Origin: an uncultured Phascolarctobacterium sp.
Lineage (GTDB): Bacteria > Bacillota > Negativicutes > Acidaminococcales > Acidaminococcaceae
DNA: 64,000 bases
Direction of reading: 5' to 3'
Assembly (NCBI GenBank): GCA_947630795.1
Contig: CANRJC010000009.1
Location: forward strand, 1-64,000
Under the pieces are notes generated by a model that saw only the letters and a list, made by a program, of their open reading frames with translations, had not been told where the DNA came from and did not search any database. How positions within the stretch are numbered: the stretch's first letter is position 1; each line of letters starts with the position of its first letter. The position numbers and the translations under genes are program-made. Positions 29,300 through 44,759 of this stretch are shown piece after piece.

Positions 29300-29455
29300 A
29301 TTCTTACCATCCTTTCATCGCCTATTTTCGGGGAAAGGACCTTTACGGCCCCTTTTGTCTTTAAGTATAGCGGCGAACTGTGGCAAAATTATGACGAAAA
29401 TTTTTCTCGCAAAAATTTTTTCTGCTTTTTTCAAACGGCCGGCATAATTTCAAAG

Positions 29456-29950
29456 TCAGTCTTTTTGCGGCCGCCGTTCTTTGAAAAAATCTTTCAGCAC
29501 TGCCCGGCACTCTTCTTCCAAAACTCCCGCCCGCACCGCCGTGCGATGATTCAGTGCGGCGTTGTCTGTGATGTTGAAGATGGACCCTGCTCCTCCCGCT
29601 TTGCTGTCCGGGCAGCCGTAGACGAGGCGCCCCACCCGGGCGTTGACCACGGCGCCGCTGCACATGGGGCAGGGTTCCAAGGTGACATAAAGAGAACAAT
29701 CGCTCAAACGCCAGCGGCCCAATACGGCGCAGGCTTCTCGCACGGCGATGAGCTCCGCATGAGCGGTGGCGTCGTGCAACTCTTCTCTTTTGTTGCGGGC
29801 GGCGGCCACCACTCGCCCTTCCCCGTCCGCTATCACCGCTCCCACGGGAACTTCTCCCGCCTCTTTTGCCAGCCGTGCTTCCGCCAGCGCCAATCCCATA
29901 TAAAATTCGTCGGACTGTCTGCCTGCGTCGATCTTTGCTTTTTCTTTCAT
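29456..29950 (-). CDS. tadA: tRNA-specific adenosine deaminase
   Basis: A 164-residue zinc deaminase converting A34 to inosine in tRNA-Arg(ACG). Zn ligands are His64 in AHAE (Glu66 is the proton shuttle) and Cys94/Cys97 in EPCPMC. The loop N in DNAALNHR region and the GEVPVGAVI start are typical. Start 29950 overlaps the ABC-F stop as ATGA and has GGAGG 7 nt upstream, so the longer frame is rejected. Confidence 0.94.
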   Translation of the reverse strand: MKEKAKIDAGRQSDEFYMGLALAEARLAKEAGEVPVGAVIADGEGRVVAAARNKREELHDATAHAELIAVREACAVLGRWRLSDCSLYVTLEPCPMCSGAVVNARVGRLVYGCPDSKAGGAGSIFNITDNAALNHRTAVRAGVLEEECRAVLKDFFKERRPQKD

Positions 29951-31881
29951 GCGTCGGCCTCCGCCGCTTCCATCAGCTCTTCCCATTTTTTCATCAGCTT
30001 CTCTATCTCTTCGCCGTAGGCTGCGTGCCGAGCGGCCAGTTCTTCGCTCTTCTTTATATCACGCTGATTGGCGGGATCGTTCAACTCTTTTTCCAAAACT
30101 TTTCGCAGCACTTCCTGCTCTCTGATGGCAAGTTCTACCCCGGGCAAAAGTTTCAAAGCCTCTTCTCGGCTAAAGCGTCTTTTCTCGCCGCTTCCTGCTT
30201 TCTGCTCGGTCGTCGCAGGTCTCTCTTTTACCGTCGCCTTCTTATCGTTTTTTGTCGAGCTCAAAGCAAGCGCTTTTTGCTGTTCTTCTTTGGCCTTGCA
30301 CTCGTTGTAATAGTCGTAGCCTCCGGCGTAAATGCGAATGGTCTTGGCAGCGGGGTCTATCTCCCAAATGCGGTCGGCGATCGCTCGGATAAAATAGCGA
30401 TCGTGGCTCACTGCCAGCACTGTGCCGCCGTAACTTCGCAGCGCTTCCTCCACCGCTTCCCGGGCCGGGATGTCCAAATGATTGGTGGGTTCGTCCAGCA
30501 CCAGACAGTTGGCGCCGTCCAGCACCAATTTCAACAGCATCAGCCGCGCTTTTTGACCGCCGCTCAAACTGTCGACTCTTTGAAAAACTTCTTCGCCTTG
30601 AAAAAGGAGACCGCCCAAAAGCGAGCGGGCCTCTGCTTCCTCCAGGCCGTGATCAAGCACGATGTTCTCCAACACCGTTCGCTCTTGCCGCAAACGCTCG
30701 TAACTTTGAGAAAAGTAGCCGATCTGCACCCTGTTGCCGATCTGACTGCTCCCCGTCAAAGGAGGCACTTCGCCCAGCAAAGTGCGGAGCAAACTGGTCT
30801 TGCCGCTGCCGTTGGGACCGATGAGCGCTACCTTCTCGCCTCTGCGTAGGGTGAGGCTCAGGTCTTCGAGCAAAATTTTGCTGCCATAGCCGACCCCCAA
30901 GCCTTCTGTGAAAAGCACCCGCTGAGCGCATTCGCTCACCGCAGGCAACCTCAGTCGAAAATTTTTCGTCTCTACAGGCGGGGCGATGCGTTCCAAACGG
31001 GCCAGCTGCGCCTCTCGGCCTCGGGCCATTTTCGCTTTGATCCCCGCTTTGTAGCGGCGAATGTAATCTTCCGTTTTTTCTATATAGGCCTGCTGCGCTT
31101 TAAAAGCCGCTGCCTCGCTGGCTCGGCGCAGCCTTTTTTGTTCCAGATAACGAGAGTAGTTGCCCTTATAAGAAGTCAGACGGCCTTGCTCCAGCTCCAA
31201 AATATTTTCCGCCACTTCGTCGAGAAAGGCTCTGTCGTGGCTCACCACCAGCAGTCCGCCTTTAAAATCGCGAAGATAGTTTTCCAGCCACTCGGTCATG
31301 TAAATATCAAGATGGTTAGTCGGCTCGTCTAAAAGCAAAAAGTCCGGGCTGTCCAGCAGGGCGGCTGCCAACATCAACCTGGTCTTCTCGCCGCCGCTCA
31401 AATTTTCCGCTTCCTCTTCCCATGTTCCCTCGGGGAACCCCAAACCGAGCAAAACTTTTTTGATGCGAAGCTCAAGGCCGTCCCCTTCTAAATGATCGTA
31501 GCGTTTCGTCAACCGCTCGTATTCTTGCAAAAGGGGAGGCTGTGCATCTTTTTGTGCTTCGGCCAAAGCAGCGGTCAATTCTTCCATACGCCGCCGCAAG
31601 GTCATGATCTGAGAGCAGCCGGCCAGCATGAATTGCCAAATTTTTCCCTTCACCGCCGTGAAGCTCTGCTCTACGTGCCCCACTTTAGTGGCCGGGGCAA
31701 AGTGTACGGTGCCGCTGTCGGCGAAGCTCGGCTCCAGCAAACAACGCAGCAGCGTGGTCTTGCCGCTGCCGTTAGGCCCTACCAGCCCCACGTGCCGCCC
31801 TTTGGGCACGGCAAAACCGAGCGCAGAAAATATCTCCGCGCTCCCGTAGGCCTTGGCAAGTTTATCCACCGTCAATTGCAT
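29947..31881 (-). CDS. ABC-F family ATPase (Uup/YfmR type)
   Basis: A 644-residue cytosolic protein with two ABC domains and no membrane part. Domain 1: GPNGSGKTTL, LSGGEKTRL and LLLDEPTNHLD. Domain 2: GPNGSGKTSL, LSGGQKARL and LVLDEPTNHLD. The P-site linker (about 240-300) is helical and basic. A C-terminal Lys/Glu coiled coil (about 560-644) is as in Uup/YfmR translation factors. It likely acts on ribosomes rather than in transport. Its stop overlaps tadA. Confidence 0.92.
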   Translation of the reverse strand: MQLTVDKLAKAYGSAEIFSALGFAVPKGRHVGLVGPNGSGKTTLLRCLLEPSFADSGTVHFAPATKVGHVEQSFTAVKGKIWQFMLAGCSQIMTLRRRMEELTAALAEAQKDAQPPLLQEYERLTKRYDHLEGDGLELRIKKVLLGLGFPEGTWEEEAENLSGGEKTRLMLAAALLDSPDFLLLDEPTNHLDIYMTEWLENYLRDFKGGLLVVSHDRAFLDEVAENILELEQGRLTSYKGNYSRYLEQKRLRRASEAAAFKAQQAYIEKTEDYIRRYKAGIKAKMARGREAQLARLERIAPPVETKNFRLRLPAVSECAQRVLFTEGLGVGYGSKILLEDLSLTLRRGEKVALIGPNGSGKTSLLRTLLGEVPPLTGSSQIGNRVQIGYFSQSYERLRQERTVLENIVLDHGLEEAEARSLLGGLLFQGEEVFQRVDSLSGGQKARLMLLKLVLDGANCLVLDEPTNHLDIPAREAVEEALRSYGGTVLAVSHDRYFIRAIADRIWEIDPAAKTIRIYAGGYDYYNECKAKEEQQKALALSSTKNDKKATVKERPATTEQKAGSGEKRRFSREEALKLLPGVELAIREQEVLRKVLEKELNDPANQRDIKKSEELAARHAAYGEEIEKLMKKWEELMEAAEADA

Positions 31882-31899
31882 GCGACCGCTCCCGTTTTG

Positions 31900-33024
31900 T
31901 TATCGATCTTTATTCCCCTCGCTGCCCTCGTTCTCTTTTTTATCCAAAAGCAACGCCGCCCATTCTTCCAAGCTGTATTCGTTCAAATTTTCGAAGAACT
32001 GCCGTCTGGCGGGGTGAACGGGCATCGACTTTGCCACCGCCAAATTATATCGAGCTCCTTTGGCGAAGTCCGTAGCTAAGATCTCCGCATTCTTTTTGAT
32101 CGCATCGAAGAGAGCCTGCCCTTTTTCGGTGTTGATGATGGTGAGGGTCACTCCCTTGTCGTCGTCGAAGTCGGGGAATTGTTTATCTATGCCCCAGTAA
32201 TCGGCGATGGTGAGGTCTGCCAAACTGCGCCTGTCGTTAAAAGCGCAGTCGGAGCAGGAAGGCCTTGTGCAGACAGAATTCAAAAAAAGACGCATGTAAG
32301 GCTCCCGCCTCTTTGTATCCCCGAAGCAATGATGGGCGGTGTAAAAAAGAGTGTGCCCGTTCTTCCAACCGTTCTCTTTGCTGCGGAAGCGAACGGCAGT
32401 GACCGGCTCCCCTGCCTGCGCCGCTATTTCCTTTAAATGTTTGCGGTAAACTGCCGGGCTGGGCACACCGTGGCACACCACATCCACCGTGTAAAGATCG
32501 TCGTAAGGGCGGCGCAAAAAACCTTTCAATCCGGCGATCTGACAAGGGGTGCCGCAAAAAAGCACCGTCTTGCCCTCTTTCAGTAAAACAGCCGTCTCTT
32601 TAAAGCAATCGCCCAGCAAACTTTGCACATATTTAGAGCCTCGCAACCGCGGCAATTCCCTTTCGCTGTCTATTCTGATGTGGCGCACGTTGAGCTCTTC
32701 ATCCAAAACGGCGCCGTACACGCAGCCGCCTCTTTTGAGCACTGCTTGCGCCAACAGTGTGAAGCAGCCGCCGCTGGAGGAGGTGAGCCTCACCTCTTCA
32801 TCTTTGTTCTTCAGGCCGTAGACCCCCGACAGCGAGTGCCTGGCAGGTCTATGCAGCAAAGGGCAAACTTTTTCGCAAAGCCCGCACTTGATACAACTTT
32901 TTTCATCGGCTCGCGGATAAAGAAAGCCCTCGTCGTCGGGTCTCAATTCGATGCATTTTTTCGGGCAAACGGAGGCGCAGGCACCGCAGCCGCAGCAGGC
33001 CGACTTATCGTCGATCAGGATCAT
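31900..33024 (-). CDS. F420 hydrogenase/dehydrogenase beta-subunit-like protein
   Basis: A 374-residue protein. Two ferredoxin motifs open it (Cys10, 13, 16, 20 and Cys44, 47, 50, 54). Then come the FrhB N- and C-terminal domains, with SSSGGCFTLLA, LRGSKYVQS, GTPCQIAGLKGFL and NSVCTRPSCSDCAFNDR. Bacterial members often sit in polysaccharide clusters, sometimes with polysaccharide pyruvyl transferases, and are thought to carry electrons to a flavin. The galE-galU-manB genes just upstream support a glycan-related role. Its own reaction is unknown. Confidence 0.82.
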   Translation of the reverse strand: MILIDDKSACCGCGACASVCPKKCIELRPDDEGFLYPRADEKSCIKCGLCEKVCPLLHRPARHSLSGVYGLKNKDEEVRLTSSSGGCFTLLAQAVLKRGGCVYGAVLDEELNVRHIRIDSERELPRLRGSKYVQSLLGDCFKETAVLLKEGKTVLFCGTPCQIAGLKGFLRRPYDDLYTVDVVCHGVPSPAVYRKHLKEIAAQAGEPVTAVRFRSKENGWKNGHTLFYTAHHCFGDTKRREPYMRLFLNSVCTRPSCSDCAFNDRRSLADLTIADYWGIDKQFPDFDDDKGVTLTIINTEKGQALFDAIKKNAEILATDFAKGARYNLAVAKSMPVHPARRQFFENLNEYSLEEWAALLLDKKENEGSEGNKDR

Positions 33025-33092
33025 ATTTTATTCCAACTCCTCTTTTGGGTGAAAAAGGCTGCCCGGGGCAGCCTTAATGTTTTCCGAATGCA

Positions 33093-34091
33093 TCAATCGG
33101 CGAAGCCGTGAGGATGAGCCTTGTGCCAGCGCCAAGCGCTGGCGATGATGTCCGTCAGGCGAGAGCGAGAAGGCCGCCAGCCCAATTCCTCTTTTATCTT
33201 CTCCGAAGATGCCACCAGCCCGGCCGGGTCTCCCGGCCGTCTGCTGCCTATGACCACGGGGAAATCGATCTCTGTCACCGCCTTGGCTTCTTTGATCACT
33301 TCACCTACACTGAAGCCCTGTTGACTGCCCAGATTGTAGATGCGGCTGCCGCCGCCCTGCAACAAATGTTTGAGCGCCAGCACGTGAGCCTCGGCCAAGT
33401 CGCACACGTGGATGTAGTCGCGGATGCAAGTCCCGTCGGGAGTGGGGTAATCGTCCCCATACACCTGGATGTTTTGACGCAGGCCCAAAGCCGTCTTCAA
33501 GATCAAAGGGATGAGGTGGCTTTCGGGCCTGTGGTCTTCGCCGATAGCTCCGCCGGGAGAAGCCCCGGCCGCGTTGAAATAACGCAAGGCCACATAGTTA
33601 AGGCCGTAGGCAGCAGAATAATCAGCCAACATCCCTTCGATAGTAAGTTTGGTGCGCCCGTAAACATTGGTGGGGACCGTGGGGCTGTCCTCTTTGATGG
33701 GAAGAGCCTCCGGCTGACCGTATACGGCGGCGGTAGAACTGAAGACCAACCTCTCTACACCTTGGGCCCGCATGGCCTCCAATAAGCAAAAGCTGCCCAC
33801 CACATTGTTGTGATAATATTTGGCCGGCTCTACCATGGATTCGCCCACCAGGGAGGAAGCGGCAAAATGCATGACCCCTTCGATGTCGTATTCTTCTAAA
33901 ATATGGCGAACAAAAGCCGTGTCGTGGATATCCCCTTCGATCAACTGTACATCTTCGGGCACCGCAGCGGCGTGACCGGTAGATAAATTGTCGTAGACTA
34001 CGGGGCAGTAGCCCTGCTGTCGAAGAGCTTCCACCACATGGGAGCCTATGTAACCGGCGCCGCCGGTGACCAGAACGGCGGTCTTACTCAT
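33093..34091 (-). CDS. galE: UDP-glucose 4-epimerase
   Basis: A 332-residue extended SDR interconverting UDP-glucose and UDP-galactose. NAD motif TGGAGYIGSH (residues 9-18), active-site Ser in FSSTAAVYG and YGRTK (Tyr-xxx-Lys), plus the YFNAAGASPGGAIGEDH stretch. It overlaps galU by 8 bp with AAGGAGG ahead of its start. Forms a galU-galE operon that provides UDP-galactose for envelope polysaccharide. Confidence 0.95.
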   Translation of the reverse strand: MSKTAVLVTGGAGYIGSHVVEALRQQGYCPVVYDNLSTGHAAAVPEDVQLIEGDIHDTAFVRHILEEYDIEGVMHFAASSLVGESMVEPAKYYHNNVVGSFCLLEAMRAQGVERLVFSSTAAVYGQPEALPIKEDSPTVPTNVYGRTKLTIEGMLADYSAAYGLNYVALRYFNAAGASPGGAIGEDHRPESHLIPLILKTALGLRQNIQVYGDDYPTPDGTCIRDYIHVCDLAEAHVLALKHLLQGGGSRIYNLGSQQGFSVGEVIKEAKAVTEIDFPVVIGSRRPGDPAGLVASSEKIKEELGWRPSRSRLTDIIASAWRWHKAHPHGFAD

Positions 34092-34974
34092 GCTGTCCGT
34101 CCTCCTTAGCCAACAGAGCCTTTAAATAAGTCAAAAACCCTTCCCGCAACTCGGGCCGCTTCAGGGCCATCTCGACCGTGGCTTCCAAAAAACCCTGCTT
34201 GTCGCCCACATCATAGCGCCGTCCCGCAAAGTTATAAGCATAAACAGGCAGACTGCGGCCCAATTCCCGCAGGCCGTCGGTCAGTTGTATCTCCCCGCCT
34301 CTGCCTCTGGGAGTTTTTTCCAAAATAGGAAAGATAGCCGGGTCGATGATGTAGCGCCCCAACACCGCGAGCCGCGAAGGGGCATCTTCGGGCCGGGGTT
34401 TTTCTACCATGTCCGACACTTTGAAGGCCCGAGGATCGGCTGTAGGCTGAGCAGCCACGATGCCGTAAGCCGAAACTTTATCGGCCGCTACTTCCTGCAC
34501 GCCCAAAACTGTGGCGCCGGTCTGCTCGTAGTAGTCCATCAACTGTTTGAGCACAGGCACCGGGGCATCCACCACATCGTCGCCCAACAGTACTGCAAAA
34601 GGTTCGTTGCCGATGAATTGCTTGGCACAGAGCACCGCATGGCCCAGTCCTTTGGGCTCTTTCTGGCGAATGTAATGGATGCTGATGTCGGAGATAGCTC
34701 TTATCATCTGCAGTTCATCGGTCTTCCCCGTTTCCTGCAGGTGCAGTTCCAGTTCTATGCTGCGGTCGAAGTGATCCTCGATGCTCCTCTTGTTGCGGCC
34801 GGTGATGATGAGGATCTCCTCTATGCCCGAGGCCAAGGCTTCTTCGATGATGTACTGGATAGTGGGTTTGTCCACTATGGGCAGCATCTCTTTGGGCGAT
34901 GCCTTGGTCGCCGGCAAAAAGCGAGTCCCCAATCCCGCTGCCGGGATGACGGCTTTACGTACTTTTTTGATCAT
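34084..34974 (-). CDS. galU: UTP-glucose-1-phosphate uridylyltransferase
   Basis: A 296-residue nucleotidyltransferase making UDP-glucose. N-terminal VIPAAGLGTRFLPATKASPK holds the nucleotide-binding and catalytic residues. LLGDDVVDA, EKPRPEDAPS and GRYIIDP match GalU. AAGGAG lies 9 nt upstream of the start. Operon with manB upstream (22-bp gap) and galE downstream. Confidence 0.95.
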   Translation of the reverse strand: MIKKVRKAVIPAAGLGTRFLPATKASPKEMLPIVDKPTIQYIIEEALASGIEEILIITGRNKRSIEDHFDRSIELELHLQETGKTDELQMIRAISDISIHYIRQKEPKGLGHAVLCAKQFIGNEPFAVLLGDDVVDAPVPVLKQLMDYYEQTGATVLGVQEVAADKVSAYGIVAAQPTADPRAFKVSDMVEKPRPEDAPSRLAVLGRYIIDPAIFPILEKTPRGRGGEIQLTDGLRELGRSLPVYAYNFAGRRYDVGDKQGFLEATVEMALKRPELREGFLTYLKALLAKEDGQHE

Positions 34975-34996
34975 ACACGATTCTCCTTTATCCCTT

Positions 34997-36364
34997 TTAT
35001 GCTTCTTTGCCTCCTATCAGCTCCAACACTTCCCGTGTTTTTGCTTTTAAGAGTTCTTTATCGCCTTTGCTCTCCACGTTGAGCCGTAAGACCGGCTCTG
35101 TATTGCTGGCCCGCACATTGAAGCGCCAACGATCGTAACCTACGGACAAACCGTCCAAACGGTCTTGCTCACCGTCGGCGTAGCGGGCAGCCAAAGCAGT
35201 CAGCACGGCAGCACTGTCTTCCACCTGCCGGTTGATCTCGCCGCTGCACGGATAAAGAGCCATTCGTTTTTGCACCGTTTGGCTGAGACTTTTGCCGCTG
35301 CTGCTGAGCAATTCGGCCACCAAGAGCCAAGGTATCATACCGCTGTCGCAACAGGTGAAGTCGTGAAAATAATGGTGTGCGCTCATCTCACCGCCGTACA
35401 ATACGCCTTCGTCCCGCATGCATTGCTTCATAAAGGCATGACCGCTTTGACAGCGCACCGGCACGCCCCCATGGGCGGCGATGATATCTTCTGTGTTCCA
35501 AACTAAACGAGGATCGTACATGATCTTGGCCCCGGGCTGCTTTTGCAAAAAAGCTTCGGCCAAAAGCCCGACGATGTAATAGCCTTCGATGAACTCTCCC
35601 TTCTCATCGAAAAAGAAACAGCGGTCGAAGTCTCCGTCCCAAGCCAGGCCCAAGTCGGCTCGCGAGGAACGGACCAAAGCCTCGGTAGCTCCCCTGTTGT
35701 TTGGAAGCAGAGGATTGGGCACGCCGTTGGGAAAATTTCCGTCAGGTCCCATGTTGATAGAGGAAAATTTAAAAGGCAAACGCTCGGCGAGTTCTTCGAC
35801 GATCGGGCCGGCCCCGCCGTTGCCCGGGTTGACTGCTATGTGCAGAGGTCTCAGCTTATCCACGTCGATATATGTGAGCAAGTGATCGATGTAATTGGGA
35901 ACGATGTCCACCTTCGTCACTTTACCTCTGCTCTTGCCGGCGACTGTTTGATGTCCGAAGTCGTTCCCCGTCACCATGGCGCCGATCTCTTTTAGTCCGG
36001 TGGCTGCTGAAATGGGCCGGGCCCCCTTGCGCACCAGCTTCATGCCGTTATAGTTTTTGGGATTGTGGCTGGCAGTGACCATGATGCCGCCGTCGGCATT
36101 CAAATAAGAGGTGGCAAAATACACCAGCTCTGTCCCGCACAGCCCGATATCCAAAACGTGGCTGCCCCCGTCCCGCAGTCCCTCGGTGAGAGCGTCAGTC
36201 AGCTCCGGCCCGCTGAGACGGATATCGTGCCCCACCACTACGGTCTCGGCCGCCAACATGGCCGAAAAGATGCGGCCCAAACGATAGGCCAACTCTTCGT
36301 TTACCTCTTCGGGGTAAAGGCCGCGGATATCATAAGCCTTAAACGCTTTGTTGCTTACTTCCAT
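34997..36364 (-). CDS. manB: Phosphomannomutase/phosphoglucomutase
   Basis: A 455-residue alpha-D-phosphohexomutase. The phospho-serine is Ser99 in TASHNPKNYNG; the Mg loop is DGDFDRCFF; the sugar-specificity loop is GGEMSAHHYF; and the phosphate-binding loop is RASNTEPVLR. Together these match the bifunctional ManB/AlgC group converting mannose-6-P or glucose-6-P to the 1-phosphates. It heads the manB-galU-galE run. The start at 36364 has GGGAGA upstream; an in-frame ATG at 36379 is an alternative. Confidence 0.92.
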   Translation of the reverse strand: MEVSNKAFKAYDIRGLYPEEVNEELAYRLGRIFSAMLAAETVVVGHDIRLSGPELTDALTEGLRDGGSHVLDIGLCGTELVYFATSYLNADGGIMVTASHNPKNYNGMKLVRKGARPISAATGLKEIGAMVTGNDFGHQTVAGKSRGKVTKVDIVPNYIDHLLTYIDVDKLRPLHIAVNPGNGGAGPIVEELAERLPFKFSSINMGPDGNFPNGVPNPLLPNNRGATEALVRSSRADLGLAWDGDFDRCFFFDEKGEFIEGYYIVGLLAEAFLQKQPGAKIMYDPRLVWNTEDIIAAHGGVPVRCQSGHAFMKQCMRDEGVLYGGEMSAHHYFHDFTCCDSGMIPWLLVAELLSSSGKSLSQTVQKRMALYPCSGEINRQVEDSAAVLTALAARYADGEQDRLDGLSVGYDRWRFNVRASNTEPVLRLNVESKGDKELLKAKTREVLELIGGKEA

Positions 36365-36472
36365 GATCTTTTCTCCCATCTCTTCATCCGCGATCCCGGC
36401 CGCTCGCAGTCGGGCCGGAGCTCATCAAGCATCGTTATTCTATACGAGCAAAGCAAAGTCCTGCTCTGCCGT

Positions 36473-37249
36473 TCACAGCTTATAGTCTCTGCGGGCCAGC
36501 ACCTCTTCGGCGGCAGCCCCCAGATAAAAACGCATAACACTGAAAAAGGGCAGGCAATTCCCTTCCTCATCCGGCTGCAGCCATTCTTCTGCCAACAAGC
36601 GGTGAACTTCTTCCGGGTCCATGCCCTGATCGATGTAGTGCACTTCATCGTCGAAGAGGGTGCGTATCACCTCCAAGCGCATCCTTTTCAGGCGAGAACA
36701 ATTCAAGTTCAGCTCGGCGATGGTGTTTTGCGCCGGCCGTATCAGCTCCGGCGGACAGGTCTTTTCATCTACGGCCATGGCTCCGTCATAAAAATTGTAG
36801 CGGAAGATGCGGGCTCTGGCGGGCAAGAGCAAAGGATTGAGGATGCGCCCTTCTATCTCTTTGTTGCCCTTTAAAACATCGCAGCTCCTGTCTCTTTGTT
36901 CGGGGCTGAAGCGCCAGTCTGCATCTCCCACGTTGGGCTGACTTCCGCCGTGGCACACCCCCAGCATGTTGCGCCAATCTAAATGAAAGTTATGAGCTCC
37001 GGGTTTGCTGGCAGACTTGGGATAAAAATGCTCCACGCGGAAATCGTCTACCTGTCCCGGCCGCAGCGCCTCTTGAATGGCGATCTCGCAATAAGCGCAG
37101 AGGCCGTGCTGATCTTCCAAGATAGCTCGCTTCACCGCCTGATAATTGGCTCGGCTGTGACGAAATGCTTCCCAAGTCCCGTCCGGGAAACGCTGCCGAT
37201 AAGTTTTCAGTCTCTCCGGCTCTTCTGCCCGTTTCTCTACGTGCTTCAT
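36473..37249 (-). CDS. ptuB: HNH endonuclease, PtuB-like (TIGR02646 type)
   Basis: A 258-residue nuclease with an HNH/zinc core: Cys51-Cys54 (CAYCE), His74 in RVEHFYPKS, and DWRNMLGVC (Cys99). This is the TIGR02646 pattern, found as PtuB in Septu and in retron-associated systems. Its ATG overlaps the ATPase stop (ATGA), so the two proteins should be made together. In Septu the nuclease is held by an ATPase complex and degrades DNA during phage infection. Defence is inference from family and partner. The C-terminal ~120 residues are helical without clear motifs. Confidence 0.8.
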   Translation of the reverse strand: MKHVEKRAEEPERLKTYRQRFPDGTWEAFRHSRANYQAVKRAILEDQHGLCAYCEIAIQEALRPGQVDDFRVEHFYPKSASKPGAHNFHLDWRNMLGVCHGGSQPNVGDADWRFSPEQRDRSCDVLKGNKEIEGRILNPLLLPARARIFRYNFYDGAMAVDEKTCPPELIRPAQNTIAELNLNCSRLKRMRLEVIRTLFDDEVHYIDQGMDPEEVHRLLAEEWLQPDEEGNCLPFFSVMRFYLGAAAEEVLARRDYKL

Positions 37250-38532
37250 CTGCTTCTTCTCCCGGCCCGCCGCAGACGGATATCCATGTCGGCCCGCAAA
37301 AGCGCCGGTTCTTTGCCCTGCGACCATTCATTCAGAATTTTTCGCAGGCTTTGAGCTTCTTCGCTGTCCCAGCGGTCTTGGGCGACCAGCTCGAGATAGC
37401 GATGCAGTTGCTGCACTATGGGCAGATTGGCGGCTCTCGTTTCCACATGCTGGATATCTTTCAGCAGTTGATAGCTTTCCGCTCCCAAAGAGAAACCGGG
37501 CCGGCGGACCCACACTTTGCCCCGTTCTTCTTTATCCCATTCCAAAATACGGATGGAAGAAGCAGGCACAGTGCTCAGCACCTGAGGCGAGTGGGTGGTG
37601 AGGATGAACTGTACTTGCGGGAAGATAGCCGTAAGATCGCCGACGATGGTCTGCTGCCAAGCGGGATACAAATGCATGTCCACTTCATCGATGAGGACGA
37701 TGCCGGGGGTGAGTTGCGGTGCTTTTCGCCCCAGTTGAGGGTTGAGGCGCACCATGCGGTAGGCTATGTCCGTCACCATGGATATGATAGCCCGCGACCC
37801 GTCGCTCAATGCATCGGTGATGGGCAATTCGCCGTAATCGGGATGAGTGACCACTATTTTATCTATGGCCTCATTGTAACGCGGGCTGCTCCATCCGGTG
37901 TGAGCCAAGCAAATATTCAAAGCTTCGTCCACCGCCGCCAAAAGTTCTTCGTCCCGGCAATCGCGCAGCCAACCCAAAAATGTGTTGTATGAACTGCTGG
38001 GCTCCAAACATTCTATATAACCGCGCAATCTGCCGGGGACCGACTGATATTTTTGCAAAAGGCTGCTGTCCTGCCAGATCCTCTGAGTGCCGTAATAGCC
38101 CAGCACCGGCAGCACCAGCGCTTCGTTGGTCTGCCAAGTTTTGAAATTTTCCACGAGGGCGGCGCCCCGGCCGTCATCGGCGACGTTGTAGCTGAGCTCG
38201 TCTTCCCCGTCCAAACGGCAACTCCAACTGAAAGTGTTCCCTTCGTCTAAACAGCCCTCGGCGTGGATGACAACAGGATAGCGAGCCTCCATGCCTTTGA
38301 TGCGCCGTTCTTGATCGTAAAAAAGGATGTTGCGGGCATCGCCGGAGGAAATTTTGCCGGCCTGCAAGCCGAAAATGGTCAGATAAGGAGCGAAGGCCTT
38401 GGCCAAAGCATCGAAGATCGCCGTCTTGCCCCGGCCGTTATCTCCCACTATCACCGTCAGCTTCGGTTCGAAATCCATATCCAGTTTCTCATAACAGCGA
38501 AAATTTTCCAGATGCAGGCTTTTGATATACAT
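37246..38532 (-). CDS. ptuA: RecF/SMC-like ATPase, PtuA-like
   Basis: A 428-residue ATPase. Walker A GDNGRGKTAI (residues 30-39), signature ALSDGSRAII (241-250), Walker B GIVLIDEVDMHLYP (277-290) and H-switch LTTHSPQVL (311-319). N-terminal LHLENFRCYEKLDM is typical of the overcoming-lysogenisation-defect/RecF AAA group. The middle (100-230) has no domain I can name. Start 38532 has AAGG 6 nt upstream, so the longer frame is rejected. With the HNH gene it forms a two-gene operon matching PtuA-PtuB. No reverse transcriptase or retron RNA lies beside it. Confidence 0.82.
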   Translation of the reverse strand: MYIKSLHLENFRCYEKLDMDFEPKLTVIVGDNGRGKTAIFDALAKAFAPYLTIFGLQAGKISSGDARNILFYDQERRIKGMEARYPVVIHAEGCLDEGNTFSWSCRLDGEDELSYNVADDGRGAALVENFKTWQTNEALVLPVLGYYGTQRIWQDSSLLQKYQSVPGRLRGYIECLEPSSSYNTFLGWLRDCRDEELLAAVDEALNICLAHTGWSSPRYNEAIDKIVVTHPDYGELPITDALSDGSRAIISMVTDIAYRMVRLNPQLGRKAPQLTPGIVLIDEVDMHLYPAWQQTIVGDLTAIFPQVQFILTTHSPQVLSTVPASSIRILEWDKEERGKVWVRRPGFSLGAESYQLLKDIQHVETRAANLPIVQQLHRYLELVAQDRWDSEEAQSLRKILNEWSQGKEPALLRADMDIRLRRAGRRSR

Positions 38533-38570
38533 GGGACACCTTCTTCGCTTTTGAAATCTTCTGCCGCCGC

Positions 38571-39677
38571 TCACTTTTTCTTCTTATCTTTTTTATTTTT
38601 ATCTTTGTTTTTATCGTCGCCCTCGGCAGCGCTCGCATTGGCTATCTCGGCCCACTTGCGCAGCAAAGAGGTGCAGGCCGCGGCGTAACTGCCGGCATCG
38701 GGGCTGATCCCCTGGGCATCCTGAGCGTAGACGCGCAGCAGTTGGATGTCGTCGTAATAGAGGTCGGCGCTGGCCCCACGATCGTAGACCAAGAAGCGGT
38801 TGGGATCGATGGGCCCCCGCTGCCTGGCCACCCAGAGGCCGCCGGCCAGCATATACGCCCGATAGGCCGCCTTGGTGTTGCCGATGCTGCGGGAGATGTT
38901 GAAGGTCCAAGCTCCCTCTTTCACGGCGGCGGTTTCGCCCTCCACCGTCACTTCCGGCTTGATCTTCATTTTTTTCAGCAGCTTCCACTGCCGCTCCACC
39001 CGCTCCTCCGGCTCGGGATGGCTGGAGAAGAGGCCGTAGTTACTGCCTCCCCCCTGTTTCGCCAGATCTTCCAGTTTGGAAGCGGTGATCAGCATCGAAT
39101 AGGGGTTGTAGCCGGCCTTCACCGTGTTGTAAAAACCTTCTTTGTCCGCGCCTCTCTCGTCGGTGCGGCTGTAGCCCGCAAAAAGAGCTTGTTGGGCCAC
39201 GGACACCAAGCCCAAGCCCTCGCCTCTGGTGGCGACGGCCAAGAGCACCGTAGTCAAAAGTTGTTTCTCGATAGCGTTGACTGTGTGCCTCTTGGCCACA
39301 TGACCGATCTCATGGCCCAATACGCCCGCCAGTTCTGTATCGGTGGGCATGTAATCCAATAGGCCCTTAAAAACATAGATGAAGCCGCCGGGACAGGCCA
39401 GCGCGTTCACTTCGTTCACGTTGAGCACTTTAAACGTGTAATCGAGATCGGTGCGGCCACACACCGGCACCAAACTTCGGCCGATGCGCTGCACTCTTTC
39501 GTTGGCTTCGTAGCCTTGATAGAGGCCGTACTGAGCTTCCAGTTTTTGCGCCGTGGCCTTCCCCATCTCTATCTCCTGCTGCTTGCTGATGAGGAAGCCG
39601 GCCTGAGCTGGCTGAACAGAGACGAAACTTACCGTCAGCACCAGAGCCGCCCAAAAAATGCCGAAATATTTTTTCAT
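38571..39677 (-). CDS. M48-family metalloprotease, exported
   Basis: A 368-residue protein with a signal peptide (cleavage after AQA26) and an M48 zinc-protease domain. HEIGH at His122-His126 supplies two ligands; the third is a Glu in DERGADKEG. The C-terminal half (about 240-345) looks like a separate beta-rich domain, and the tail is lysine/aspartate-rich (DDKNKDKNKKDKKKK). It is probably a periplasmic or surface quality-control protease. Transcribed alone, 38 bp upstream of the PtuA start in the reading direction, so read-through into the ptu pair is possible. Confidence 0.87.
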   Translation of the reverse strand: MKKYFGIFWAALVLTVSFVSVQPAQAGFLISKQQEIEMGKATAQKLEAQYGLYQGYEANERVQRIGRSLVPVCGRTDLDYTFKVLNVNEVNALACPGGFIYVFKGLLDYMPTDTELAGVLGHEIGHVAKRHTVNAIEKQLLTTVLLAVATRGEGLGLVSVAQQALFAGYSRTDERGADKEGFYNTVKAGYNPYSMLITASKLEDLAKQGGGSNYGLFSSHPEPEERVERQWKLLKKMKIKPEVTVEGETAAVKEGAWTFNISRSIGNTKAAYRAYMLAGGLWVARQRGPIDPNRFLVYDRGASADLYYDDIQLLRVYAQDAQGISPDAGSYAAACTSLLRKWAEIANASAAEGDDKNKDKNKKDKKKK

Positions 39678-39767
39678 CAGATCTTTTTCTCCTCGATAGA
39701 CCTTGCGGGGCTTGGCGAGAGCTTTTTACAGCTTCCGCTTTTTGAGAGTTGCCTTTTGACAGTCGAT

Positions 39768-40910
39768 CTATATTGCTCCCATTTGCCGCAATTTTATGAT
39801 CTCGTCTACGCTGTAGCCTAAGTTCGTCAAAATATTGGCGCTGTGTTCTCCGAGCCGCGGCGCCCGCCGCCTGATGCTGCCCCCTTGGCCGTCGAATTTT
39901 ATCGGGGCGCCCAGATAACGGACCGTCCCCAGGTCGCTCTCTTGTTCGGTGAGCAGGCCTTCCTGCTCCGTCAGAGGATCGGCCAAAGCTTCTTTCAACG
40001 TGTGAACGGGTGTGACGCAGATCTCTTCGCCGCCCAAAAGTTCCAGCCATTCTTTTAAAGTTTTTTCCGAAATTTTAGCGGCGATGAGGCGGCCGATCTC
40101 TTCTGTGTGTTCGAAGTCGAATTGACGCTCTTGCAATTCGGGCAACTGCAAAAGTTTACAGAGGCTGCTCCAAAATTTCGGCTCGATGGTGCCCACGGTC
40201 AAATAGCGGCCGTCGCGGCAGCGGTAAACGTTGTAATAGTGGCCGGCCCGGCCGAAGCTTCGGCCTCCCTCTTCTTCGCAGCCCCACAAACTCGAAGCGG
40301 CGGTAGACTGCAGGCTCAAGGCCGTGGCGTATAGATTCACGTCGATGTGGCGGCCCGGCCCGCCTCTTTCTCGCTCGAGCAGATTCATGCAGACGGCGCT
40401 CAAAGCATTGAGGGCGCTGCCCAAGGCGCTTTCCTGCACATTGCTCACGCAGGGCGTCCCTTCTTCGCCGAAGTCGTTGAGACCGGCGAGACCGGTGACG
40501 TTGAGATCGTGGGCCGGTTTGTGACAGCGCTGCCCGAAACCGGTGATGGAACAATAAACGAGCCCGGGGTTGAAGCTGTGGACCTCTTCGAAGCCCAGCC
40601 CGTAGCGGGCGAGATAGCCCGGGCGAAAGCCTTCCAAAAAAACGTCGGCCTTGCTCAAAAGCTCCAGCAGGATCTGCGCGCCCTCGGGCTTTTTGATATC
40701 CAGCGCCAAGCCGAACTTGTTGCGGTTCAGCATCAGGTGCCAATAACTCATGTTCTCTTCTTTGGCCGGGAAGAAACGGCGGGTGCCGTCTCCGGCCAAG
40801 TCTTCGACTTTGATGACCGTGGCGCCGTAATCGGCCAGCAGCATGCCGCAGTATTGGCCCGGCAGCCATTTGGAAAAATCGACGACGGTGATGCCCTCTA
40901 AGATGCCCAT
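39768..40910 (-). CDS. CaiB/BaiF-superfamily CoA enzyme (racemase-like)
   Basis: A 380-residue protein of the CoA-transferase family III/alpha-methylacyl-CoA racemase fold. The N terminus (VVDFSKWLPGQYCGMLLADYGATV) and LNRNKFGLALDIKKPEG match the family. His134-Asp135 (AHDLN) match the racemase His motif. At the position of the catalytic Asp of transferases and racemases there is Glu160 (NVQESALG). So it may be a racemase-like enzyme rather than a CoA transferase. No acyl-CoA metabolism genes are adjacent. Confidence 0.82.
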   Translation of the reverse strand: MGILEGITVVDFSKWLPGQYCGMLLADYGATVIKVEDLAGDGTRRFFPAKEENMSYWHLMLNRNKFGLALDIKKPEGAQILLELLSKADVFLEGFRPGYLARYGLGFEEVHSFNPGLVYCSITGFGQRCHKPAHDLNVTGLAGLNDFGEEGTPCVSNVQESALGSALNALSAVCMNLLERERGGPGRHIDVNLYATALSLQSTAASSLWGCEEEGGRSFGRAGHYYNVYRCRDGRYLTVGTIEPKFWSSLCKLLQLPELQERQFDFEHTEEIGRLIAAKISEKTLKEWLELLGGEEICVTPVHTLKEALADPLTEQEGLLTEQESDLGTVRYLGAPIKFDGQGGSIRRRAPRLGEHSANILTNLGYSVDEIIKLRQMGAI

Positions 40911-41004
40911 TTTTCTTTGACTCCTGCTTGATGCATTGCTCTCTTTTATTTTTAAAAACTTCTACGCGTTCCCTTTTTTCCCTGCCTTCGCCTTCCCTGC
41001 ACCC

Positions 41005-41034
41005 TTGATTTTGCGACGGCGGCGATGATATAAT
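41005..41034 (+). promoter_or_regulatory. Promoter of the thiW-arsR operon
   Basis: TTGATT (41005-41010), 18-nt spacer and perfect TATAAT (41029-41034) on the + strand. Just downstream an inverted repeat, TTGCGT (41039-41044) and ACGCAA (41061-41066), could be a hairpin or an operator. Confidence 0.75.
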
Positions 41035-41098
41035 GAAGTTGCGTTTTCGTCTGTTGCTTTACGCAAAATTTTTCGACGCAAAGAGTGAGGCACAAGCG

Positions 41099-41587
41099 AT
41101 GGAACTTCGCAAATTTACTTCGGCGGCGCTTTTGGTGGCCATAGGCACCTTGAGCGCTCATCTCGTCTACATACCCGTGGGCGTCTCCAAGTGCTTCCCC
41201 GTGCAGCACGCCATCAACGTCATGGCCGGCGTTTTGCTGGGGCCCGATTACGCTGTGGCGGTGGCCTTCGTCATCTCCTGCCTGCGCAATATTTTGGGCA
41301 CCGGCTCTCTTTTGGCCTTCCCGGGCAGCATGTGCGGCGCTCTTTTGGCCGGCTTGGCCTATGCCCGTTGGCAAAATCTGTCTTTAGCCATGAGCGGCGA
41401 GATCTTCGGCACCGGCATCGTGGGCGGCCTGCTGGCTTGGGCAGTGGCTTACCTTCTGCTGGGCAGTCAGGCGGCGGCGTGGACCTTCGTGCCTCCCTTT
41501 TTGCTGAGCACCGTGGGGGGCAGCCTCATCGCCGGTCTCGTGCTGAAGAGCGGTGTGCTGCAGCAGCGTTTGAAAGAAGGAAAATAA
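41099..41587 (+). CDS. thiW: ThiW, thiazole ECF S component
   Basis: A 162-residue membrane protein with about five helices. LSAHLVYIPVGVSKCFPVQH and NVMAGVLLGPDYAVAVAF are the ThiW family core. The family is assumed to take up hydroxyethylthiazole for thiamine synthesis, using shared ECF ATPases. GTGAGG is upstream of the ATG. No thiamine riboswitch (THI box) is seen upstream. It shares a transcript with the next two genes. Confidence 0.9.
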   Translation: MELRKFTSAALLVAIGTLSAHLVYIPVGVSKCFPVQHAINVMAGVLLGPDYAVAVAFVISCLRNILGTGSLLAFPGSMCGALLAGLAYARWQNLSLAMSGEIFGTGIVGGLLAWAVAYLLLGSQAAAWTFVPPFLLSTVGGSLIAGLVLKSGVLQQRLKEGK

Positions 41588-41588
41588 A

Positions 41589-41882
41589 ATGGATCTTGAG
41601 CGGGCTGTCAATTTGATGCTCTATGCCCTCAGCGGCTTTTTCTTCGGCATCTTCGCTGCCCGCTGGTGTATTTACGGCGCCGCCAGGATCGCAGATAAAT
41701 GGCGGACGGAAGGGGTGACCGGCCTCTTTTCCTGTCTGCCCTTCTTTCTGCTTTTGTCGGTGGGCTTCTTCTTTTTCCCCATGTGGTTCGTCACTAAGAC
41801 CGAGTTAGGCAGCTTCGTCTACTATCTGGTGCTGATCTTTTTCTTCAACCGAGGCTACAGGGCCTTGAACAAAAACAGGTGA
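41589..41882 (+). CDS. Small membrane protein, unknown
   Basis: A 97-residue protein with three hydrophobic helices (about 8-28, 46-68, 74-90), the last followed by NRGYRALNKNR. The gene starts 1 bp after the thiW stop and ends 4 bp before arsR. Not recognised. Its position suggests a link to thiW or to the ArsR-sensed metal. Confidence 0.7.
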   Translation: MDLERAVNLMLYALSGFFFGIFAARWCIYGAARIADKWRTEGVTGLFSCLPFFLLLSVGFFFFPMWFVTKTELGSFVYYLVLIFFFNRGYRALNKNR

Positions 41883-41886
41883 AGCG

Positions 41887-42222
41887 ATGAGCGGCGACGC
41901 TAAAAATTTCGAAAACATCCCGGCCGGTGCGGTGGAAGCTAAATATGTCCAGCCTATGGCCGCCATCTTCAAAATGATCGGCGACCCCACCCGCATCCGC
42001 ATCCTGGCTCTCTTGGCGCAGCAGGAACTGTGCGTGAACTGCATCGCCTCTTCTCTGGCCATGACCCCTTCGGCCATTTCTCATCAGCTGCGGCTGCTGC
42101 GAGAAGCGGGGCTGGTGAAATTCACCAAAGACGGCAAAGAAGTGATCTATTCTTTGGACGACGAGCACGTCCTCACCCTCTTCGACCAGGCGTTGGATCA
42201 TGTGAAGCATAAAACGCCCTGA
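41887..42222 (+). CDS. ArsR/SmtB-family metal-sensing regulator
   Basis: A 111-residue winged-helix repressor. HTH: IASSLAMTPSAISHQLRLL. The alpha-3 site ELCVNC keeps two cysteines of the ELCVCD motif. The alpha-5 site is complete: Asp92-x-His94-x10-His105-x2-His108, the Zn/Co/Ni ligand set of SmtB and CzrA. So it should release DNA on binding a divalent metal. It is the third gene of the thiW operon, which it may autoregulate. Confidence 0.9.
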   Translation: MSGDAKNFENIPAGAVEAKYVQPMAAIFKMIGDPTRIRILALLAQQELCVNCIASSLAMTPSAISHQLRLLREAGLVKFTKDGKEVIYSLDDEHVLTLFDQALDHVKHKTP

Positions 42223-42245
42223 AAATTTTTTCGAAAAAAGCAAAA

Positions 42246-42291
42246 AACACACGGCTTCGTCCCTTGAAAAGACGGAGCGTGTGTTTTTCTT
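42246..42291. terminator. Bidirectional terminator between arsR and the lipoprotein gene
   Basis: ACACACGGCTTCGTC and GACGGAGCGTGTGT form a long stem (one mismatch) followed by TTTTTCTTTT on the + strand. T-rich sequence also follows on the minus strand. Confidence 0.85.
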
Positions 42292-42301
42292 TTGCGTGCG
42301 G

Positions 42302-43330
42302 TCAGCGGGCTTCCTTCCACTTGCGGATGACTTCGCTTTTATAGATGCTGGTCCACCCCAGATCGTCCACCGGCACCTGCACCTTGCCGATGAATTCTTT
42401 GCGGCCCACGTTGTCGGGATAATTTTTCACATGCCAGAGGAAGTAGTAGCCGTTTTCCCTGAGCAGCTCCACGCTCTCGTCGCTCATCAAATAATCCAAA
42501 AAAGCCCGGGCTCCCTCTTTGTTGGCGGCGTTGGCCAAAAGAGCCGCCCCGGTGAGCAGGTTGCGGTTGGCGTCTTTGATGATGCTGGCAAAAAGATGGG
42601 GATGCTTGCCCTCTAGGATCATCGCATAAGAGAGGGGCACCACGGCCACCGTCTTTTCGCCGCTGTAGACCAGCCAGCCTGCCTCTGCCAAGCCGGCGGT
42701 GAGCTGCGGCCTTTGAGCATTGAAGCGGGCGGCGTAGGCCAAAGCCTTATCTTTGCCCCGCAGCTGCCAGATGCTGGTGAGCATGCTGTAGCTGGCGCCG
42801 CCGTGCTCATAATCGGGCACGGCGATCTCGTCCCGAAGTTTTTCATCCAGCAGTTCGTCCCAAACGGTGGGGGCGTAAAGGCCGAAGCGCCGCAATTTTT
42901 CTTTGTTGCTGATCAGCCCGATGTAACCCAGATAGAGGCTGGTCCAATGGCCGTCTTTGTTGCGCAAAGTGACGGGCACTTTGTAGGCTTCCCGAGTGAG
43001 GTAAGGCTCCAGCGCCGCTTCCCGATGCGCTAAATAGTATTCTTCCGCCGTGCCGCCCAGCCACACATCGAAGCGGCCGTTTTTCAAATAGGCCAAGCGC
43101 TCTTGAAAAGTGCCGGCCGGCAAATAGGTGACTTCCGCTCTCGCTTGCTGCCTTTGGGTAAAATCGCGGATCAAAAGGCCGGTGAGGTCTTCGCCCAGAC
43201 TGCTGCAGACCCGCAGCACCTGCCGCTCCTCTCCCTTGCGGCTCTCGGCGGGCCCGCCGCAGCCGACAGCTGCTGCCGCCAGCAGGAGGAGCCCGATGAG
43301 CACCGTCGCTTTACCTAACTTTTTGAACAT
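42302..43330 (-). CDS. Extracellular solute-binding lipoprotein (Fe/AfuA-like, family 1)
   Basis: A 342-residue periplasmic-type binding protein with a lipobox ending in Cys24 (AAAAVGC). Two-lobe fold with RVCSSLGEDLTGLLIRDF at the start of lobe one, GRFDVWLGGTAEEYY and later ISNKEKLRRFG. This resembles iron or organophosphonate binding proteins of ABC importers (AfuA/PotD class). No permease or ATPase gene is adjacent, so it is an orphan. GGAGG sits 8 nt upstream of the start. Confidence 0.85.
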   Translation of the reverse strand: MFKKLGKATVLIGLLLLAAAAVGCGGPAESRKGEERQVLRVCSSLGEDLTGLLIRDFTQRQQARAEVTYLPAGTFQERLAYLKNGRFDVWLGGTAEEYYLAHREAALEPYLTREAYKVPVTLRNKDGHWTSLYLGYIGLISNKEKLRRFGLYAPTVWDELLDEKLRDEIAVPDYEHGGASYSMLTSIWQLRGKDKALAYAARFNAQRPQLTAGLAEAGWLVYSGEKTVAVVPLSYAMILEGKHPHLFASIIKDANRNLLTGAALLANAANKEGARAFLDYLMSDESVELLRENGYYFLWHVKNYPDNVGRKEFIGKVQVPVDDLGWTSIYKSEVIRKWKEAR

Positions 43331-43687
43331 GACCGCCGCCTCCGCACATTGCTAACTAATTATACAACTTGCCGGCGAAAAATGCCACCGCCATCTCCGT
43401 TAAAGAGACGGCCGCACTTGTATGCCGAAATTTTTCTCCGTGAGTCCCATGAGCCCCCTTCCCACCGAAAGAGCAAAAGCGCCGCGACCCCTCGACTTTG
43501 CAAAACGGCGCGGCTTTTTTCTGCGCAGGCTTTTGCAGATCATCTAACTTTTTTTGAGAGGAGAAAAAGCAGCGTCGGTCTTTGCAAATTATCACCGCCC
43601 CTTCCTCTCAAGAGCGCAGGCCTGTGGTAAAATAAAAATAAGCGCCGACCCGCGGCGCAACTTTGCGCAAAACAAGGAGGCTCTCTC
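43331..43687. other. Divergent intergenic region with promoters and one extra hairpin
   Basis: Contains a minus-strand -10 (TATAAT at 43359-43364) for the lipoprotein gene and a + strand extended -10 (TGGTAAAAT, 43625-43633) for the radical SAM gene. Between them a GCGCCG/CGGCGC hairpin (43479-43511) is followed by CTTTTTT on the + strand, like the end of a small RNA or a leader. A second GC hairpin (43642-43658) sits in the radical SAM leader. Confidence 0.5.
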
Positions 43688-44626
43688 ATGCCCTACTGTT
43701 ATATCTGTCCCCATCGCTGCGGCGTAGACCGCCCTTTGACTCTCGCAGACAGCGCAGAAGGCCGCTGCTTCGGCAGCTGCGGCTGCGGTCTCGCCCCCAT
43801 CGTGGCCCGGGCCGCTCTCCATCGCTGGGAAGAGCCCTGCATCAGCGGCACCCGCGGCGCAGGCGCCGTCTTCTTCTCCGGCTGCAACCTGCACTGCGTT
43901 TTCTGTCAAAATTTTTCTGTCAGCAGCAAAAACGGCTACGGCGACGGCTTCGGCATCGAGATCGATGTGCCCCGGCTGCGGCAGATCTATCGCGAATTGA
44001 TCGAAGAAGGCGCCCACAACATCGATCTGGTGACCCCCACCCATTTCGCTCAGGCGGTGGCGGAAAGTTTGGACGCACCTCTCGGTGTGCCGGTGATCTA
44101 TAACTGCGGCGGCTTCGAGACCTTGGACACTTTGGCCAAGCTCAAGGGCAAGATAGATATTTATCTGCCCGATCTGAAATGGTACGACGATGTGGCGGCC
44201 GTGAAATACAGCAACGCCCCTTCCTATTTCCGCGTGGCCACCGCCGCCATCGAAGCCATGTATGAACAAGTGGGCGCTTATAAATTAGACGAAGACGGCC
44301 TCTTGCAAAAAGGCGTGCTGATCCGCCACTTGATCATGCCCGGCTTTCTCGACGACACGAAAAAGATCATCGACTGGGTGGCGAAAACTTTTAAGCCCGG
44401 CCAGGTGCTCTTCAGCCTCATGCGTCAATATGTGCCCTGCGGCAGAGCAAAAGAGTATCCCGAGATCGACCGCACCTTGAGCGACGAAGAATATAAAGAG
44501 GCGGAAGCCTATCTTCTGGCAAGTTCTATCGAAGACGGTTACCTGCAGGAAGAAGCGGCCTGCGCGTCCGAGGACTTCATCCCCGCCTTCGACGGCACCG
44601 GCGTGCTGAAGAAAGCGGAGAACTGA
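43688..44626 (+). CDS. Radical SAM protein (PflX/PflA-like, COG1313 type)
   Basis: A 312-residue radical SAM enzyme. The SAM cluster is Cys66-xxx-Cys70-xx-Cys73 (GCNLHCVFCQN). An N-terminal cysteine group (residues 4, 7, 11, 27, 31, 33) could hold another cluster. SAM-binding LVTPTHF and a TIM-barrel strand order (VPVIYNCGGFE, DIYLPDLKW) match uncharacterised pyruvate-formate-lyase-activase relatives. AAGGAGG lies ahead of the ATG. No target protein is adjacent, so its substrate is unknown. Confidence 0.88.
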   Translation: MPYCYICPHRCGVDRPLTLADSAEGRCFGSCGCGLAPIVARAALHRWEEPCISGTRGAGAVFFSGCNLHCVFCQNFSVSSKNGYGDGFGIEIDVPRLRQIYRELIEEGAHNIDLVTPTHFAQAVAESLDAPLGVPVIYNCGGFETLDTLAKLKGKIDIYLPDLKWYDDVAAVKYSNAPSYFRVATAAIEAMYEQVGAYKLDEDGLLQKGVLIRHLIMPGFLDDTKKIIDWVAKTFKPGQVLFSLMRQYVPCGRAKEYPEIDRTLSDEEYKEAEAYLLASSIEDGYLQEEAACASEDFIPAFDGTGVLKKAEN

Positions 44627-44693
44627 AAGGCGAAGAGCGCAGGAGAAAACTAATATCGTTGAGCAAGCAGACGAAGAGCAAAATAAAAACACA

Positions 44694-44731
44694 AAAGGGC
44701 CCCGGCGGGCGATCGCTCGTCGAGGTCCTTT
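44694..44731. terminator. Terminator between convergent genes
   Basis: A long imperfect stem centred on GCGATCGC (AAAGGGCCCCGGCG side to CGTCGAGGTCCTTT side). T-rich tails on both sides serve the radical SAM gene and the HAD gene. Confidence 0.75.
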
Positions 44732-44759
44732 CCTTCTGAGTTTTTTGCGAGGCTCTCTT

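What the first reader, a model, noticed from the sequence alone, without database searches (positions are those of the whole stretch)
36473..38532. PtuAB-like nuclease/ATPase pair (Septu-type anti-phage candidate)
An ATPase with Walker A, signature, Walker B and H-switch overlaps by ATGA an HNH nuclease with the TIGR02646 cysteine/His pattern. This is the composition of Septu and of the effector pair in some retrons. There is no reverse transcriptase, so it would be a stand-alone system. The ATPase is short (428 residues) and its middle region is unassigned, so it may be a distinct subtype. It sits among nucleotide-sugar and protease genes with no mobile-element genes.
Basis: partly seen in the sequence, partly recalled or inferred. 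Interest (0 to 1): 0.62.

Follow-up and report, generated by a model that had tools for sequence, protein, structure and literature searches.

The report
Fixed, inherited Septu anti-phage gene pair
The two genes are an ordinary-looking Septu anti-phage pair (an ATPase and a nuclease), but unlike most such systems this one sits at the same chromosomal spot in most members of a whole bacterial family and appears to have been inherited vertically rather than swapped around.

Summary
In detail: ptuA (37246-38532, minus strand, 428 aa) and ptuB (36473-37249, minus, 258 aa) overlap by ATGA and are real, selected genes. Full-length profile matches put them in Septu type I: PADLOC PtuA1 E=2e-120 and PtuB1 E=2e-91, with solved PtuA 8ee4 at 6e-64. 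The 'short, unassigned, perhaps distinct subtype' part is not supported. PADLOC PtuA1 models run to 421-455 positions, the middle aligns to solved PtuA, and the protein lacks only a 20-residue loop that most relatives have.

PtuA is in 40 of 59 genomes (12 of 18 genera) of the window's family. PtuB follows it in all 39 that can be judged, and 33 have the pair directly upstream of pgm, usually followed by galU-galE-ABC-F. About 1% of other genomes in the phylum have it. Catalytic residues are invariant, dN/dS is about 0.02-0.10 as in the flanking housekeeping genes, and divergence tracks theirs. Several lineages have lost it cleanly.

So this is a standard stand-alone Septu, unusual in being vertically inherited and position-fixed across a family. 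Anti-phage function and the target (phage DNA or tRNA) are inferred, not shown.

The parts
37246..38532 (-). ptuA: SMC/RecF-like ABC ATPase of Septu type I, 428 aa; Walker A residues 30-37, signature LSDGSRA 242-248, Walker B ending D282-E283, H-switch H314
   Evidence: PADLOC PDLC00278 PtuA1 2.3e-120 over residues 1-426; solved PtuA 8ee4 6e-64; these motif residues invariant in the family relatives; dN/dS 0.10
36473..37249 (-). ptuB: HNH endonuclease of Septu type I, 258 aa; C51-A-Y-C54-E, E73-H74-F (catalytic His), H89, N94, C99-H100
   Evidence: PADLOC PDLC00349 PtuB1 1.9e-91; TIGR02646 2.4e-25 above cut-off; H74 aligns with the His that is Ala in chain 9o4a of the retron Ec83 HNH protein; motif invariant in 37 relatives
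37246..37249 (-). ATGA stop/start overlap, consistent with translational coupling of ptuA and ptuB
   Evidence: Sequence; a 4-base overlap of the called ORFs recurs in genera g3, g5, g8, g9, g10, g14, g15, g16 and g17
34997..36379 (-). pgm/pmm: phosphoglucomutase/phosphomannomutase, the conserved downstream neighbour (start of the cluster pgm-galU-galE-ABC-F, usually followed by tadA in relatives); not part of Septu but marks the fixed site
   Evidence: Pfam PGM_PMM I-IV; directly downstream of ptuB in 33 of 40 carriers
36380..36472 (-). 93-nt interval ptuB-pgm, no convincing terminator or promoter found
   Evidence: Scan no better than shuffles
38571..39677 (-). M48 peptidase gene upstream of ptuA; seen only in the window's genus, replaced in most other genera by other genes, often a divergent DUF401 permease gene
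   Evidence: Pfam Peptidase_M48 4e-27; neighbour comparison

Best explanation
ptuA-ptuB is a stand-alone Septu type I anti-phage system. By homology PtuA is an ABC-type ATPase that forms a multi-subunit scaffold and holds the HNH nuclease PtuB inactive until phage infection changes its nucleotide state. PtuB then cuts its target (phage DNA, or a host tRNA such as tRNA-Tyr) and infection fails or the cell stops growing. In this bacterial family the pair was in place early, next to pgm-galU-galE-ABC-F, and has since been passed down mainly vertically under strong purifying selection, with occasional clean losses. Shown here: identity, catalytic motifs, co-selection, fixed position, largely vertical descent. 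Inferred from relatives: oligomer, ATP control, target, anti-phage outcome.
For: Full-length PADLOC PtuA1 and PtuB1 matches; solved Septu PtuA 8ee4 and retron HNH 9e8z as relatives. Adjacent in 39 of 39 evaluable genomes. 40/59 genomes and 12/18 genera of the family versus 2 of about 397 (PtuA, E<=1e-25) and 4 of about 397 (PtuB profile) elsewhere in the phylum. Same site upstream of pgm in 33 of 40. Each multi-genome genus is one clade. Tree distances correlate with four flanking housekeeping genes: Spearman 0.83 over 32 genomes, 0.88 over 12 genera, 0 of 2000 permutations as high. dN/dS about 0.02-0.10, like pgm and ABC-F. No in-frame stop in any of 40 PtuA copies. Relatives are experimentally anti-phage: Septu EcB88 cleaves tRNA-Tyr (PMC13096335), Providencia Septu is active and needs PtuB H53 (PMC12935923).
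Against: No phage assay. Septu relatives differ in target (PMC11555353), so the target here is open. Housekeeping-like conservation and a housekeeping neighbourhood are not typical of defence genes and leave a host role possible. AU tests reject identical topologies for ptuAB and pgm or galE, although pgm and galE reject each other too, and ptuA and ptuB trees also differ, so some allele exchange is likely.
Confidence: 0.82

Rival explanations
1. Domesticated Septu: the pair keeps its nuclease but serves a host function (for example a stress- or prophage-triggered growth arrest, or a role tied to the nucleotide-sugar/translation neighbourhood), which would explain family-wide retention at one site.
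For: Near-core distribution, fixed position, housekeeping-like dN/dS. Downstream neighbours in many genera include ABC-F and a tadA-like tRNA deaminase gene.
Against: Cleanly absent with both flanks kept in G006 and G018, and absent from all nine g12 genomes, so dispensable. In genera g15 and g17 the pair has been separated from pgm and still persists, so no strict tie to pgm.
Confidence: 0.13
2. Hot spot: the site upstream of pgm is a recurrent landing site into which related Septu pairs were inserted repeatedly, so the synteny reflects a hotspot and not descent.
For: Some deep splits differ between the PtuAB and housekeeping trees. dS of ptuA exceeds that of neighbours in some pairs, for example G026/G068.
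Against: Only this one Septu subfamily was seen at the site; no other defence or mobile gene was recognised there. All seven multi-genome genera are clades in PtuAB; distances track the flanks; in the window's genus dS of ptuA and ptuB (0.17, 0.21) equals the flanks (0.16-0.25). Topology conflict is no larger than between pgm and galE.
Confidence: 0.04
3. Orphaned retron effector: the pair came from a retron type I-A that lost its reverse transcriptase and non-coding RNA.
For: PtuB is closer in sequence to the retron Ec83 HNH protein (4.6e-26) than to the PtuB chain 8ee7 solved with Septu PtuA (0.02).
Against: PtuA is closer to stand-alone PtuA 8ee4 (220 bits) than to retron PtuA (128 bits), and lacks the roughly 63-residue N-terminal extension and some 54 middle residues that retron PtuA has. 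No retron RT in the genome. Upstream neighbours recognised in carriers are DUF401, M48, permease, dapF or aminotransferase-like genes, not RT.
Confidence: 0.01

Closest known systems
Septu type I (PtuA + PtuB), e.g. the solved PtuA 8ee4 / PtuB 8ee7 complex and Septu EcB88 (PMC13096335)
   Same: Two genes only, PtuA ABC ATPase then PtuB HNH nuclease, no RT; full-length PtuA homology; all ATPase and HNH motifs kept
   Different: PtuA lacks about 26 residues after position 189 relative to 8ee4; PtuB diverged from 8ee7. The locus is position-fixed and inherited in a family, whereas Septu is reported in about 4% of prokaryotic genomes overall (PMC11811056)
Retron type I-A effectors (Ec78/Eco7, Ec83/Eco4 PtuA-PtuB)
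   Same: Same two protein families; PtuB most similar in sequence to the Ec83 HNH protein
   Different: No RT or ncRNA; PtuA lacks the N-terminal extension and extra middle residues of retron PtuA; NCBIfam NF041760 and NF041761 curated cut-offs not reached (267 of 500 and 137.5 of 150 bits)
Other core-like defence loci, e.g. the E. coli type I-E CRISPR locus (PMC10121019)
   Same: Defence locus at a fixed chromosomal site, present in about 70% of genomes and degraded in the remainder; not on a mobile element
   Different: That case is within one species; here the site is kept across 11 genera with PtuA identities down to about 45-50%

Membership tests
Septu type I | PtuA-type ATPase matching curated PtuA1 profiles over its length | tested here: met
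   PDLC00278, 400.8 bits, 2.3e-120, residues 1-426 on profile 1-433/436
Septu type I | PtuB-type HNH nuclease matching curated PtuB1 profiles over its length | tested here: met
   PDLC00349, 304.6 bits, 1.9e-91, residues 1-257 on profile 1-259/260; TIGR02646 above cut-off
Septu type I | ptuA and ptuB adjacent as a two-gene unit | tested here: met
   ATGA overlap in the window; adjacent in 39 of 39 evaluable relatives
Septu type I | Intact ATPase (Walker A/B, signature, H-switch) and HNH catalytic residues | tested here: met
   Invariant across 38 PtuA and 37 PtuB sequences where the alignment column is filled; H74 aligns with the residue replaced by Ala in 9o4a
Septu type I | PtuA-PtuB complex formation and ATP control of the nuclease | not testable with these tools
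   Inferred from solved homologues only
Septu type I | Protects against phage | not testable with these tools
   Shown only for relatives (PMC13096335, PMC12935923)
Retron type I-A | Reverse transcriptase and msr-msd next to the effectors | tested here: not met
   No RT in the locus; the only genome RT is on contig C8 and scores as group II-like, in a DGR-like context; no Rfam hit
Retron type I-A | Retron-type PtuA with N-terminal extension (about 550 aa) above the NCBIfam cut-off | tested here: not met
   428 aa; NF041760 266.7 of 500 bits; alignment starts at retron residue 65
Mobile defence-island gene | Integrase, transposase or other defence genes nearby; variable position between relatives | tested here: not met
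   Neighbours are housekeeping genes; same position in 33 of 40 carriers. Wider flanks were not scanned exhaustively for mobile genes

The most novel reading that the evidence does not exclude
A Septu nuclease system has become a near-core, vertically inherited, position-fixed component of a whole bacterial family and has taken on a host role (for example a built-in infection- or stress-triggered growth arrest) beyond opportunistic phage defence.
Probability: 0.13. Interest if true: 0.7.

Novelty: new member of a known kind. Interest (0 to 1): 0.4.

Why it matters
Defence systems are usually thought to turn over quickly on mobile elements; E. coli defence hotspots have a median occupancy of 8% (PMC10121019). 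A Septu pair kept at one site across 11 genera, under purifying selection like that on sugar-metabolism genes, is a natural case for asking why some defence systems become permanent. Relatives with and without it, and with both flanks intact, give matched comparisons.

Tried and rejected
Distinct subtype because of short PtuA: rejected. PADLOC PtuA1 models have 421-455 positions and the only sizeable gap against relatives is 20 residues after position 194. Retron origin: rejected. Structured RNA near the pair: no Rfam hit. Promoter/terminator scan: no signal above shuffles. The search for related loci in genome contigs with PtuB found only one locus, L033; its contig, CANQBR010000009.1, 51373 bases, titled uncultured Phascolarctobacterium, has the same length as G001 contig C9. 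Plasmid and phage records hold only distant PtuA (at most 38% identity over the full length). Literature search for Septu with Phascolarctobacterium gave nothing relevant in its titles, and the Li et al. Septu structure paper is not held. Two IQ-TREE scripts failed for technical reasons. I did not run structure prediction: solved homologues cover the fold and only near-identical sequences were eligible for the alignment.

Full report
WHAT IS THERE. On the minus strand, ptuA (37246-38532, 428 aa) is followed by ptuB (36473-37249, 258 aa) with an ATGA overlap. PADLOC gives full-length matches to PtuA1 (PDLC00278, 2.3e-120) and PtuB1 (PDLC00349, 1.9e-91). Pfam gives AAA_15/AAA_21 for PtuA and nothing for PtuB. 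NCBIfam TIGR02646 passes its cut-off for PtuB, while the two retron Ec78 equivalogs do not reach theirs. Among solved structures the closest PtuA is 8ee4 (6e-64) and the closest PtuB is the retron Ec83 HNH chain 9e8z (4.6e-26). The genes are Septu type I by profile, composition and order.

THE SHORT PtuA. PADLOC PtuA1 models have 421-455 positions. The alignment to 8ee4 runs through the middle, apart from about 26 residues after position 189. Against relatives in the family the only sizeable gap is 20 residues after position 194. Retron PtuA proteins are longer because of a roughly 63-residue N-terminal extension and some 54 more residues in the middle. The shortness is an ordinary loop difference.

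NO RETRON. The genome has one RVT_1 hit, on contig C8. It scores as group II-like and lies beside a protein ending in RPLIVIN and a 190-aa ORF, which from memory resembles a diversity-generating retroelement, not a retron. Rfam finds no RNA family in 28000-46000.

DISTRIBUTION. In 59 genomes of the same family PtuA (E<=1e-25) is present in 40, in 12 of 18 genera, 24 of 38 among good-quality genomes; none of the copies has a stop inside. In the rest of the phylum PtuA was found at this threshold in 2 of about 397 genomes, at 31-32% identity. A PtuB1 profile found 4 of about 397, one of them with an in-frame stop. As yardsticks in the same 59 genomes, Cas1 is in 22 and HSDR_N in 29 above cut-off, with several genomes holding multiple copies on different contigs; I did not test whether any of those is position-fixed.

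FIXED POSITION. In 33 of 40 carriers, from 11 genera, ptuA-ptuB lies directly upstream of pgm, usually followed by galU, galE and an ABC-F gene and often then a tadA-like deaminase gene. Upstream there is often a divergent DUF401 permease gene; in g13 a small secreted-type gene, often with an aminotransferase-like gene and dapF beyond it; in the window's genus M48 and CaiB genes. Of the other seven carriers, G033 keeps the pair beside galE, and several in g15 and g17 keep DUF401 next to ptuA although pgm has moved. PtuB follows PtuA in all 39 genomes where the contig allows judgement. Clean empty sites exist: DUF401-pgm in G006 (100% complete) and dapF-aminotransferase-small gene-pgm in G018. 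All nine g12 genomes lack PtuA, and the pgm loci read there have another gene in that place. The pair is thus dispensable but usually kept.

DESCENT. In a PtuAB tree each of the seven genera with more than one genome is a single clade. Tree distances correlate with those of pgm+galU+galE+ABC-F (Spearman 0.83 for 32 genomes, 0.88 for 12 genera; 0 of 2000 permutations as high; median rate ratio 1.37). The topologies are not identical: AU tests reject pgm and galE trees for ptuAB, but pgm and galE also reject each other with similar likelihood differences, and random trees are thousands of units worse. ptuA and ptuB trees also differ. I read this as mainly vertical inheritance with some noise or allele exchange. 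One candidate exchange is ptuA in G026/G068, where ptuA has dS 0.66 while ptuB and pgm have 0.14 and 0.12.

SELECTION. dN/dS in close pairs is about 0.02-0.10 for both genes, overlapping pgm, galE and ABC-F. In the window's own genus dS of ptuA and ptuB (0.17, 0.21) equals the flanks (0.16-0.25). Walker A, signature, Walker B, H-switch and the HNH/Cys residues are invariant where aligned. H74 of PtuB aligns with the His that is Ala in 9o4a.

HOW IT LIKELY WORKS. From relatives: PtuA and PtuB form a complex with a horseshoe-like arrangement (PMC11811056 citing earlier work). PtuB H53 is needed for defence in Providencia (PMC12935923). Septu EcB88 cleaves tRNA-Tyr in the variable loop only upon infection (PMC13096335), retron Eco7 PtuAB depletes tRNA-Tyr, and another Septu was reported to cut phage DNA (PMC11555353). 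Everything beyond identity, integrity, adjacency, position and descent is inference for this locus.

VERDICT. A known kind of system, with an uncommon history: a Septu pair that has become a position-fixed, mostly vertically inherited feature of a bacterial family. Whether it still serves only against phages or has acquired a host role is open and testable.

Noticed in passing
L060:9766-13321 (genome contig C8): A probable diversity-generating retroelement: 411-aa RT, 190-aa Avd-like ORF without a Pfam hit, and a 500-aa protein with a VR-like C-terminus (GVRPLIVIN). It is the only RT hit in the genome.
   Followed up: partly
L058 (G051 contig C17, about 49.6-51.6 kb): A broken Septu pair in another family of the same class: PtuA in pieces with a stop, PtuB with an in-frame TAA, in contrast to the 40 PtuA copies without stops in the window's family.
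   Followed up: partly
L059 (G017 contig C14, about 28.9-30.5 kb): A second, divergent PtuA-like/PtuB-like pair (34-37% identity) in a genome that also has the fixed copy.
   Followed up: no
L035:10168-11385 and relatives: A DUF401 permease gene stands divergently next to ptuA in many genera and stays with the pair in genomes where pgm has moved away; a shared control region is possible.
   Followed up: no
L105 (G068) versus L036 (G026): ptuA differs far more than ptuB or pgm between these two close genomes (dS 0.66 against 0.14 and 0.12), suggesting local replacement of ptuA by recombination, or an assembly artefact at a contig end.
   Followed up: partly
L056 and L057 (genus g15): The PtuA proteins of this deep-branching genus are only 369-375 aa, lacking more of the middle, yet remain open and next to DUF401.
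   Followed up: no
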